49,227 nucleotides of DNA from assembly GCA_023473795.1 (NCBI GenBank), contig JAMCYS010000130.1:1-49227 (forward strand), in the 5' to 3' direction. This DNA is from Chloroflexota bacterium (GTDB lineage: Bacteria > Chloroflexota > UBA6077 > FW602-bin22 > JAMCYS01). Both the position numbers and the translations under genes were made by a program. This document shows positions 41,707 through 44,789 of the stretch, piece by piece (position 1 is the first letter of the stretch; each line of letters begins with the position of its first letter). The notes below the pieces were generated by a model that worked only from the letters and a program-made list of their open reading frames with translations, had not been told where the DNA came from and did not search any database.

Positions 41707-41735
41707 TTGACACTTATCGTCCCTCGTGTTACACT
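41707..41735 (+). promoter_or_regulatory. Promoter of the nrdR-nrdJ operon
   Basis: TTGACA at 41707-41712, 17-bp spacer, TACACT at 41730-41735; transcription start expected near 41742. Confidence 0.8.
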
Positions 41736-41740
41736 TGGAT

Positions 41741-41783
41741 CAAGATGTTGTACTGGCCGGATGGCGGGAGCACAACATATAGT
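41741..41783 (+). promoter_or_regulatory. Twin NrdR boxes
   Basis: Two matches to the NrdR-box core CWATATATWGT: CAAGATGTTGT at 41741-41751 (9 of 11) and CAACATATAGT at 41773-41783 (10 of 11). Their starts are 32 bp apart, three helical turns, the usual spacing. They overlap the transcription start and lie 20 bp before the GTG of nrdR, which fits repression of its own operon. Confidence 0.75.
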
Positions 41784-41802
41784 AAACATAAGGAATGCCG
41801 AG

Positions 41803-42393
41803 GTGCGTTGCCCCTCCTGCGGAGCTGAGGAATTGAAAGTCACTGATAGCCGCGAGCTGGACGACTCGGTGCGCCGGCGCCGGGAATGTCAGACTTGCGG
41901 CCATCGCTTCACCACTTTCGAGCGCCTGGACCGCCTGCGCTGCCCGCGCTGCGGCGCGACCGACAGCAAGGTGTCGACCTACCTCGACCTCGAGCACGGC
42001 CTGCGGCGCAGCCGCGAGTGCCCGCGTTGCGGCAACCGTTTCACCAGCACGGAACGGGTTGACGCCGTGAGCATTCTCGTCGTCAAGAAGGACGGTCGCC
42101 GCGAGGAGTACAACCGCGGCAAGGTGCTGGAAGGCGTGCGCAAGGCCTGCTCAAAGCGGCCGGTTCTCCCCGCGCAGATGGAGGCTCTGGTGGACGAGGT
42201 GGAGGCGGTTCTGTACAACACGGGGCTGCCGGAAGTCGAGAGCCATTACATCGGGGAGCTGGTGGTCGAGCGCCTGCGGCAGCTGGACCTTGTGGCCTAC
42301 ATCCGCTTTGCCTCGGTCTACCGGCCTCTGCAGGATTTGGAAAGCCTGCGTCGGGAGCTGGACTCCCTGCTCCAGAGCCAGCCAGGAGGCTGA
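41803..42393 (+). CDS. nrdR: Transcriptional repressor NrdR with two zinc ribbons
   Basis: 196 residues, about 40 more than normal NrdR. NrdR represses ribonucleotide reductase genes when dATP/ATP bind its ATP cone. Residues 1-43 are the usual zinc ribbon (MRCPSCGAEELKVTDSREL, RRRRECQTCGHRFTTFERLD; Cys 3, 6, 29, 32). Residues 45-87 repeat it (LRCPRCGATDSKVSTYLDLEHGLRRSRECPRCGNRFTSTERVD; Cys 47, 50, 73, 76). An ATP cone follows (ILVVKKDGRREEYNRGKVLEGVRKACSKRPV to RELDSLLQ). GTG at 41803 has AAGGA nine bases before and gives the canonical MRCPSCG. nrdJ follows after 95 bp. Confidence 0.93.
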   Translation: MRCPSCGAEELKVTDSRELDDSVRRRRECQTCGHRFTTFERLDRLRCPRCGATDSKVSTYLDLEHGLRRSRECPRCGNRFTSTERVDAVSILVVKKDGRREEYNRGKVLEGVRKACSKRPVLPAQMEALVDEVEAVLYNTGLPEVESHYIGELVVERLRQLDLVAYIRFASVYRPLQDLESLRRELDSLLQSQPGG

Positions 42394-42488: not shown

Positions 42489-44789
42489 ATGGCCCGCCAG
42501 ACAAAAGGGGAAAAAGTCCCGCTCAACGGCGGCAACGCCACTCATGACTCAGCTGAGGTCACCGTGCGTCTATCGGCCAATGCCCTAACCGTCCTCAAGC
42601 GCCGCTACTTGGCGAAGGATGAGAACGGCGACGTGATCGAGACGCCAGAGGAGATGTTCTGGCGGGTGGCGCGCAACATCGCCTCCGCCGAGCGGCTCTA
42701 CGACCCTCGGGCCGACGTGGAGTCCCTGGCCCACCAATTCTACGAGGTAATGGCGGGCTTGGCCTTCCTGCCCAACTCGCCCACCCTGATGAATGCCGGC
42801 CGTGAGCTGCAGCAGCTTTCCGCTTGCTTCGTGCTGCCGGTCGACGACAGCATGGAATCGATCTTCGAGGCCATCAAGAGCACGGCGCTCATCCACAAGT
42901 CGGGCGGCGGCACGGGCTTCTCCTTCAGCCGCCTGCGGCCCAAGGACGACAAGGTGCTTTCCACCGGCGGTGTGGCCAGCGGACCGATCTCCTTCATGCG
43001 CGTCTTCAACGCCGCCACGGAGGCGGTCAAGCAGGGGGGCACCCGACGTGGGGCCAACATGGCCATTTTGAACGCCGAGCACCCGGATATCGAGGAGTTC
43101 GTCAACTGCAAACGTGACGACGCGGCGCTGCAGAACTTCAACCTCTCGGTCGGCATCAGCGAGCGCTTCATGGAGGCCGTGGAGGCGGACACGGAGTATC
43201 CGCTGGTCAACCCGCGCACCGGCCAGGCGGAGAAGATGGCGTCGGCCCGACGCGTCTTCGACGCGATTGTGGAGAGCGCCTGGGCCAGCGGCGAACCGGG
43301 CATCGTCTTCCTCGACCGCATGAACCGCGATAACCCGACGCCTCAGGTGGGCGAGATCGAGAGCACCAACCCCTGCGGCGAGCAACCTTTGCTGCCTTAC
43401 GAATCCTGCAACCTGGGCTCAATTAACCTGGCCCAGATGGTCGGCAGCAACGGCAACGGGCCGCTCATCGACTTCGACCGCCTGCGTCGGCTGACGGGCC
43501 TCGCCGTGCATTTCCTGGACAACGTCATCGACGTCAACAAGTATCCCTTGCCCGAAATCGAGCAGATGACCAAAGCCAACCGCAAGATCGGCCTGGGCGT
43601 CATGGGTTTCGCCGACCTGCTCATCCAGCTGGGCGTTCCTTACAACTCCCCGCGGGCGCTTGAGGTCGCGGGGCAGGTAATGAAGGCTATCCAGGAGAGC
43701 GCCCGCGAGGCTTCGGCCGAGCTGGCGACCAAGCGCGGCGCCTACGCCAACTTCCCCGGCTCCATCCACGATCGCCCCGGCCAGCCACGCCTGCGCAACG
43801 CCACGGTGACCACCATCGCGCCGACCGGCACGCTAAGCATCATCGCCGGCTGTTCGAGCGGCATCGAGCCGCTGTTTGCCGTCTGCTACGTGCGTAACGT
43901 AATGGACGACGACCGTTTGCTGGAGGTCAACCCCTACTTCGAGCTTGCCGCCAAGCGACACGGTTTCTACAGTGCCGAGCTGATGCGTAAGGTCGCCGCT
44001 CACGCCAGTCTGCGCGAGGTCGAGGAAGTGCCGGAGGAGATCCAACAGCTGTTCGTCACGGCGCACGATGTGACGCCGGAATGGCACGTGCGCGTGCAGG
44101 CGGCCTTCCAGCGCAATACCGACAACGCCGTCTCCAAGACGGTCAACTTCCCGGAGAGCGCTACCAAAGACGACGTGCGCCAGGTCTTCCTGCTGGCCTA
44201 CAAAGAGGGCTGCAAGGGCGTCACCATCTATCGCGACGGCAGCCGCCAGAAGCAGGTGCTGAGTGTCGGCAAGAAGGAGGCGAAGGTCGCTGGGTCGGAT
44301 TTGCCCGCCAGGGTCGAGCCGCGCAACCGGCCCTCGGTAACCGCCGGCTACACCGAGCGCATCCGCACGGGCTGCGGCAACCTGTACGTCACGGTCAACG
44401 AGGACGAGCAGGGGCTGTGCGAGGTCTTTACCCAGATGGGCAAGTCCGGCGGCTGCGCCGCGGCCCAGTCAGAATCGACGGCGCGCATGATCTCTGTTTC
44501 CCTGCGGGCTGGGGTCAGCGCCGACGCTATCGTTAAGCACCTGCGCGGCATTCGTTGCCACTCGCCGGCCTGGGATAGCGGCAGCACGGTGCTCTCCTGC
44601 CCGGACGCCATCGGCATCGTGCTCGACCGCTACCTCAAGCGCAAGAAGGGCGAGTCGCTGCAACCCACCCTCTGGTCGCACGACCAGATGGATACTGTGG
44701 TCGGGGCCTGCCCGGATTGTGGCGGCACCATCGAGCACGAGGGCGGCTGCCTGGTTTGCCACGTGTGCGGGTACAGCAGATGCGGTTAG
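42489..44789 (+). CDS. nrdJ: Adenosylcobalamin-dependent (class II) ribonucleoside-diphosphate reductase
   Basis: 766 residues. Class II RNR makes deoxyribonucleotides with B12 and needs no oxygen. Visible: LPNSPTLMNAGRELQQLSACFVLPVDDSMESIFEAIKSTALIHKSGGGTGFSFSRLRP, GGTRRGANMAIL, STNPCGEQPLLPYESCNLGSINL (thiyl radical Cys and Glu), IAPTGTLSIIAGCSSGIEPLFA, and a C-terminal zinc/shuttle segment CPDCGGTIEHEGGCLVCHVCGYSRC. There is no ATP-cone at its N-terminus. ATG at 42489 has GGAGG about 12 bases before. It is under NrdR boxes through the operon promoter and is followed by dCTP deaminase. Confidence 0.97.
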   Translation: MARQTKGEKVPLNGGNATHDSAEVTVRLSANALTVLKRRYLAKDENGDVIETPEEMFWRVARNIASAERLYDPRADVESLAHQFYEVMAGLAFLPNSPTLMNAGRELQQLSACFVLPVDDSMESIFEAIKSTALIHKSGGGTGFSFSRLRPKDDKVLSTGGVASGPISFMRVFNAATEAVKQGGTRRGANMAILNAEHPDIEEFVNCKRDDAALQNFNLSVGISERFMEAVEADTEYPLVNPRTGQAEKMASARRVFDAIVESAWASGEPGIVFLDRMNRDNPTPQVGEIESTNPCGEQPLLPYESCNLGSINLAQMVGSNGNGPLIDFDRLRRLTGLAVHFLDNVIDVNKYPLPEIEQMTKANRKIGLGVMGFADLLIQLGVPYNSPRALEVAGQVMKAIQESAREASAELATKRGAYANFPGSIHDRPGQPRLRNATVTTIAPTGTLSIIAGCSSGIEPLFAVCYVRNVMDDDRLLEVNPYFELAAKRHGFYSAELMRKVAAHASLREVEEVPEEIQQLFVTAHDVTPEWHVRVQAAFQRNTDNAVSKTVNFPESATKDDVRQVFLLAYKEGCKGVTIYRDGSRQKQVLSVGKKEAKVAGSDLPARVEPRNRPSVTAGYTERIRTGCGNLYVTVNEDEQGLCEVFTQMGKSGGCAAAQSESTARMISVSLRAGVSADAIVKHLRGIRCHSPAWDSGSTVLSCPDAIGIVLDRYLKRKKGESLQPTLWSHDQMDTVVGACPDCGGTIEHEGGCLVCHVCGYSRCG

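What the first reader, a model, noticed from the sequence alone, without database searches (positions are those of the whole stretch)
41803..42060. NrdR with a duplicated zinc ribbon
NrdR normally has one zinc ribbon and an ATP cone (about 150 residues). Here a second complete zinc ribbon (Cys 47, 50, 73, 76) is inserted after the first (Cys 3, 6, 29, 32), each with the FT[TS]xER[LV]D tail. The second copy has diverged, so this is an established duplication, not an assembly error. It could change DNA reading or the spacing of box contacts in the tetramer.
Basis: partly seen in the sequence, partly recalled or inferred. Interest (0 to 1): 0.72.

Follow-up and report, generated by a model that had tools for sequence, protein, structure and literature searches.

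The report
NrdR repressor with two zinc ribbons
In several families of Chloroflexota bacteria, the repressor that controls the genes for making DNA building blocks carries two zinc-binding DNA-contact modules in a row instead of one; the first still has all the DNA-reading residues, while the second has lost them but keeps the residues that pair modules together.

Summary
Window 41803-42393 encodes a 196-residue NrdR with two in-frame NrdR zinc ribbons (Cys 3/6/29/32 and 47/50/73/76) and one ATP-cone, directly upstream of a class II ribonucleotide reductase (NrdJ). It is not an assembly error: 34 of 400 sampled Chloroflexota genomes have the same architecture, in six families, one of them in a single-contig genome. 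All 80 relatives fetched from 16 named phyla, and most Chloroflexota, have one ribbon. The second ribbon is under purifying selection. Its divergence is patterned: all four zinc Cys and Arg27/Arg29/Glu42 (E. coli numbering; ribbon-ribbon pairing) are retained, while base-reading Asp15 and Arg17 are gone and Arg28/Arg37 have decayed; ribbon 1 keeps these. Operator spacing is unchanged: detected box pairs in double-ribbon genomes lie 31-32 bp apart start to start, as with ordinary NrdR (one genus has 40 bp at nrdR itself), so changed box spacing is not supported. Best reading: an old tandem duplication followed by division of labour, ribbon 1 reading DNA and ribbon 2 acting as a structural or pairing module. 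I found no description of it in the open-access papers searched. It is a new variant of a known repressor.

The parts
41707..41735 (+). Sigma-70-like promoter, TTGACA (41707) - 17 bp - TACACT (41730)
   Evidence: Direct reading and coordinates; consensus match only, inference
41738..41753 (+). NrdR box 1 (gatCaagatgttGtac)
   Evidence: Best box pair in the upstream region, score 23.4 against shuffle maximum 6.8; coordinates
41770..41785 (+). NrdR box 2 (gcaCaacatataGtaa), 32 bp from box 1 start to start, spacer 16 bp
41803..42393 (+). nrdR gene with two zinc ribbons and an ATP-cone, 196 aa
41803..41931 (+). Ribbon 1 (residues 1-43): canonical DNA-reading ribbon; Cys 3, 6, 29, 32; D15, R17, R24-R27, R35 kept
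41932..42066 (+). Ribbon 2 (residues 44-88): Cys 47, 50, 73, 76; pairing residues R69, R71, E84 kept; D15/R17 equivalents are T59/L61
42076..42336 (+). ATP-cone (residues 92-178)
42489..44789 (+). nrdJ, class II (B12-dependent) ribonucleotide reductase; no ATP-cone found in it
   Evidence: NF006417 1229 bits; PF00317 + PF02867 + TSCPD

Best explanation
The gene encodes the genome's NrdR, the dATP/ATP-sensing repressor of ribonucleotide reductase genes, in a double-ribbon form found in parts of Chloroflexota. A tandem duplication of the 44-residue ribbon (shown), probably a single old event (compatible with the trees, not proven), was followed by division of labour. Ribbon 1 still carries the residues that read the palindromic NrdR boxes. 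Ribbon 2 keeps the zinc ligands and the residues that pair two ribbons but has lost the base-reading residues (shown from sequence), so it most likely acts as a structural module that pairs with a second copy between the DNA-reading ribbons and the ATP-cones (inferred). The operator geometry remains the canonical three helical turns (shown for most promoters with detectable boxes), so the extra domain is accommodated within the usual two-box tetramer (inferred).
For: Two PF22811 domains plus an ATP-cone in one open frame, NCBIfam NrdR well above cut-off. nrdJ directly downstream. 34 of 400 Chloroflexota genomes double, full-length matches from residue 1; all sampled members of families f24 (19), f33 (6), f36 (5) and f75 (2) are double. 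Ribbon-2 sequences are one side of a branch in the ribbon tree (support 77); one clade of doubles is not rejected (AU p 0.436 with ribbon 1 + cone; 0.096 with cone only). Ribbon 2 dN is far below dS (for example 25 synonymous, 0 nonsynonymous changes for G097 against G132). Weighted conservation in ribbon 2: Cys 100%, R27, R29, E42 100%, T40 92%; D15 about 1%, R17 0%, R28 42%, R37 61%; ribbon 1 and single ribbons keep them at 92-100%. Roles of these residues: D15/R17 contact bases (PMC9110341); R27/R29/E42 bridge ribbon pairs while D15/R17/R26/R28/R37 lie on the DNA face (PMC12176259). Box distances peak at 31-32 bp in doubles as in singles. Ribbon 2 + cone is modelled as an ordinary NrdR ribbon with block pLDDT 82-91.
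Against: R27 and R29 also touch DNA phosphates in the S. coelicolor structure, so their retention does not prove pairing; they and E42 could also simply hold the fold. No structure or assembly state of a double-ribbon NrdR is known; in the full-length model ribbon 2 had no alignment depth and low confidence. The cone-only tree gives no clade of doubles, so several origins or transfers are possible. One genus (f24 g44) has 40-bp spacing at its nrdR promoter.
Confidence: 0.6

Rival explanations
1. Ribbon 2 is an auxiliary DNA-backbone clamp: it contacts phosphates next to the box or in the spacer without reading bases and raises affinity.
For: R12 (R/K 100%), R27 and R29 (100%) are kept in ribbon 2, and these positions contact phosphates in the S. 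coelicolor complex.
Against: R26, R28 and R37, which share the DNA face with D15/R17, have decayed, while E42, which is acidic and in the ribbon-ribbon interface, is invariant.
Confidence: 0.2
2. Ribbons 1 and 2 of one chain pair with each other in cis, making a single-chain ribbon pair.
For: Both ribbons keep the pairing residues R27/R29/E42, and they are joined by only a few residues.
Against: The boxes stay palindromic with C4 and G13 in the window and in most double-ribbon promoters with boxes, which suggests two reading ribbons per box; ribbon 2 lacks D15/R17.
Confidence: 0.1
3. The second ribbon lengthens the arms and changes the box spacing that the tetramer reads.
For: One genus (f24 g44) has boxes 40 bp apart at nrdR.
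Against: The reductase promoters of the same f24 genomes and of f33, f75, f56 have 31-32 bp, as does the window; spacers of 25-26 bp also occur with single-ribbon NrdR in Streptococcus pneumoniae (PMC12051234).
Confidence: 0.05
4. Assembly or binning artefact, or a decaying duplicate.
For: The window is from a 170-contig draft genome with 4.8% contamination, and its nine same-order relatives with an NrdR match are single-ribbon.
Against: 33 other genomes have it, including single-contig G049; ribbon 2 is under purifying selection in sister species.
Confidence: 0.02

Closest known systems
NrdR (TIGR00244; solved chains 7P37/7P3F/7P3Q Streptomyces coelicolor; 9FVR/9FXK/9GEX Escherichia coli)
   Same: Canonical first ribbon, ATP-cone, paired 16-bp boxes at three helical turns, beside an RNR gene; best PDB matches by sequence and by fold are NrdR chains.
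   Different: A second, diverged ribbon of 44 residues lies between the canonical ribbon and the ATP-cone; published NrdRs are described with one ribbon.
Stand-alone NrdR-type ribbons in viral contigs (L250-L281)
   Same: Same PF22811 ribbon with the RRRR motif.
   Different: Single ribbon without an ATP-cone.
Double zinc ribbon proteins (Pfam DZR, PF12773)
   Same: Two zinc ribbons in a row.
   Different: The match is below the Pfam cut-off (22 against 27.3 bits); both ribbons here match the NrdR ribbon family instead.

Membership tests
NrdR | N-terminal NrdR-type zinc ribbon with two CxxC, DSR and RRRR motifs | tested here: met
   Ribbon 1: PF22811 61.8 bits; D15, R17, R24-R27 present
NrdR | ATP-cone following the ribbon | tested here: met
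   PF03477 92-178, 70.9 bits; the only PF03477 match found in the genome
NrdR | Whole-protein NrdR equivalog score | tested here: met
   TIGR00244 184.8 bits against cut-off 124.65
NrdR | Exactly one ribbon (usual description of known members, not a curated criterion) | tested here: not met
   Two ribbons, 196 aa; this is what makes it a variant rather than an ordinary member
NrdR | Two palindromic boxes about 31-32 bp apart near RNR genes | tested here: met
   41738-41753 and 41770-41785, nrdJ downstream
NrdR | dATP/ATP-dependent oligomerisation and repression | not testable with these tools
   Needs biochemistry
Double zinc ribbon (DZR) | Pfam DZR score over cut-off | tested here: not met
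   22 against 27.3 bits

The most novel reading that the evidence does not exclude
Ribbon 2 is a dedicated trans-pairing module that holds the NrdR tetramer together, so that in these Chloroflexota oligomerisation is uncoupled from DNA reading, which in ordinary NrdR is done by the same ribbon pair.
Probability: 0.45. Interest if true: 0.65.

Novelty: new variant of a known kind. Interest (0 to 1): 0.5.

Why it matters
In ordinary NrdR one small ribbon both reads the operator and holds the tetramer together, so the two roles are hard to mutate apart. In these proteins evolution appears to have split them between two ribbons, which gives a natural way to test how nucleotide sensing by the ATP-cones is passed to DNA binding. 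It also gives a ready sequence test for which ribbon residues serve DNA reading and which serve pairing.

Tried and rejected
Changed box spacing: rejected by the distance spectra, with one 40-bp exception. Assembly artefact: rejected. Origin of ribbon 2 from another zinc-ribbon family: PF22811 is by far the best family (86.8 bits for the two stretches together) and ribbon 2 alone passes its cut-off; PF06827 (zf-FPG_IleRS) is only marginally over its own cut-off (23.5 against 21.3 bits). Double ribbons on plasmids or phages: 50 plasmid and 18 phage records hold relatives, one of which covers at least 80% of the query; the listed rows gave no sign of a second ribbon, but the sequences were not read. 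Viral contigs hold only single, cone-less ribbons. Searching other phyla as whole genomes was not possible: the search centre must be a genome handle from this phylum. Regular-expression extractions that missed some proteins were replaced by a profile-based extraction.

Full report
Observation. The open frame at 41803-42393 starts with GTG after an AAGGA run and encodes 196 residues. Pfam finds the NrdR zinc ribbon twice and one ATP-cone, and NCBIfam calls the whole protein NrdR. The next gene is nrdJ, a class II ribonucleotide reductase (42489-44789), and dCTP deaminase follows. Upstream lie a sigma-70-like promoter and two NrdR boxes whose starts are 32 bp apart.

Distribution. Among 100 relatives the ribbon profile matched twice in frame, about 132 bp apart, in the window's genome and in eight others. 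A profile of double-ribbon proteins searched over 400 Chloroflexota genomes found NrdR in 372 and the full double architecture in 34: f24 (19), f33 (6), f36 (5), f75 (2), f56 (1) and the window's own f1 (1). All sampled members of f24, f33, f36 and f75 are double. The nine same-order relatives of the window with an NrdR match are single. Family codes are anonymous, so I cannot name these families; that the phylum is Chloroflexota is my reading (genome sizes and the named relatives nearest in sequence). All 80 relatives fetched from the public genome collection (16 named phyla, four of the loci Chloroflexota) have one ribbon. In 33 of the 34 double genomes the protein is the only match of this search; G230 has a second, unexamined one.

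Origin. Ribbon-2 sequences form one side of a branch in a ribbon tree (support 77, only 45 columns). With ribbon 1 plus cone the doubles need two changes and one clade is not rejected (AU p 0.436); the window groups with f75 and f56 (94/93). The cone alone is poorly resolved (AU p 0.096). One old duplication with losses or transfer fits, but several origins are not excluded. Sister species show strong purifying selection on ribbon 2; the window's own protein has no close relative on which to test this.

Division of labour. In published structures D15 and R17 contact bases and R12, R26-R29 and R37 contact phosphates (PMC9110341); R27, R29 and E42 form salt bridges between paired ribbons, while D15, R17, R26, R28 and R37 lie on the DNA face (PMC12176259). 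Weighted by sequence clusters, ribbon 2 keeps C3, C6, C31, C34, R27, R29 and E42 at 100% and T40 at 92%, but D15 at about 1%, R17 at 0%, R28 at 42% and R37 at 61%; ribbon 1 and single ribbons keep them at 92-100%. The retained positions 27, 29, 40 and 42 alternate with the decayed 26, 28, 39 and 41, as expected for the two faces of a sheet (inference). The pairing role of ribbon 2 is inferred from this pattern; R27 and R29 also touch phosphates, so a backbone-clamp role remains possible. The last ribbon-2 Cys stands 17 residues before the first ATP-cone VVK, as in E. coli NrdR (counted from the sequences), so ribbon 2 sits where a normal ribbon sits relative to the cone and ribbon 1 lies outside it.

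Operator spacing. Upstream of nrdR, single-ribbon genomes peak at 31 bp and double-ribbon genomes outside f24 at 32 bp; RNR promoters of double-ribbon genomes peak at 31 bp (examples). In f24 g44 the nrdR promoter has boxes 40 bp apart, while RNR promoters of the same genus have 31 bp. Boxes were not found in f24 g36 or in several single-ribbon genomes, so this is a statement about detectable boxes.

Structure. AlphaFold2 of the whole protein gives a ribbon, a second three-stranded unit and an ATP-cone; ribbon 2 had no alignment depth and low confidence. The fragment ribbon 2 + cone is modelled as an ordinary NrdR with ribbon pLDDT of 82-91 per block. The best solved matches are NrdR chains. 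No oligomer or DNA complex was modelled.

Literature. No paper in the open-access library that I found describes an NrdR with two ribbons; subscription papers were not searched.

Verdict. Real, inherited, selected, and a new variant of NrdR. Confidence is high for the architecture and the residue pattern, moderate for the proposed division of labour.

Noticed in passing
L250-L281 (IMG/VR viral contigs): Stand-alone NrdR-type ribbons without an ATP-cone, including a 96-residue family (L253-L259), possibly phage regulators acting at NrdR boxes.
   Followed up: partly
L117, L119, L120, L170, L172, L175 (family f24, genus g36): Ribbon 1 has lost its fourth zinc Cys (CSxGH), and no NrdR boxes were found upstream of nrdR (six genomes) or of the RNR gene (three examined).
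   Followed up: partly
L153, L154, L168, L169, L171 (family f24, genus g44): nrdR promoters have two conserved boxes 40 bp apart, while RNR promoters of the same genus have 31 bp.
   Followed up: partly
L148 (G006:C17): A 59-aa ribbon-only ORF in a Chloroflexota genome that also has a normal NrdR.
   Followed up: no
genomes without a match (for example G004, G007, G009, G027): 28 of 400 Chloroflexota genomes gave no NrdR match.
   Followed up: no
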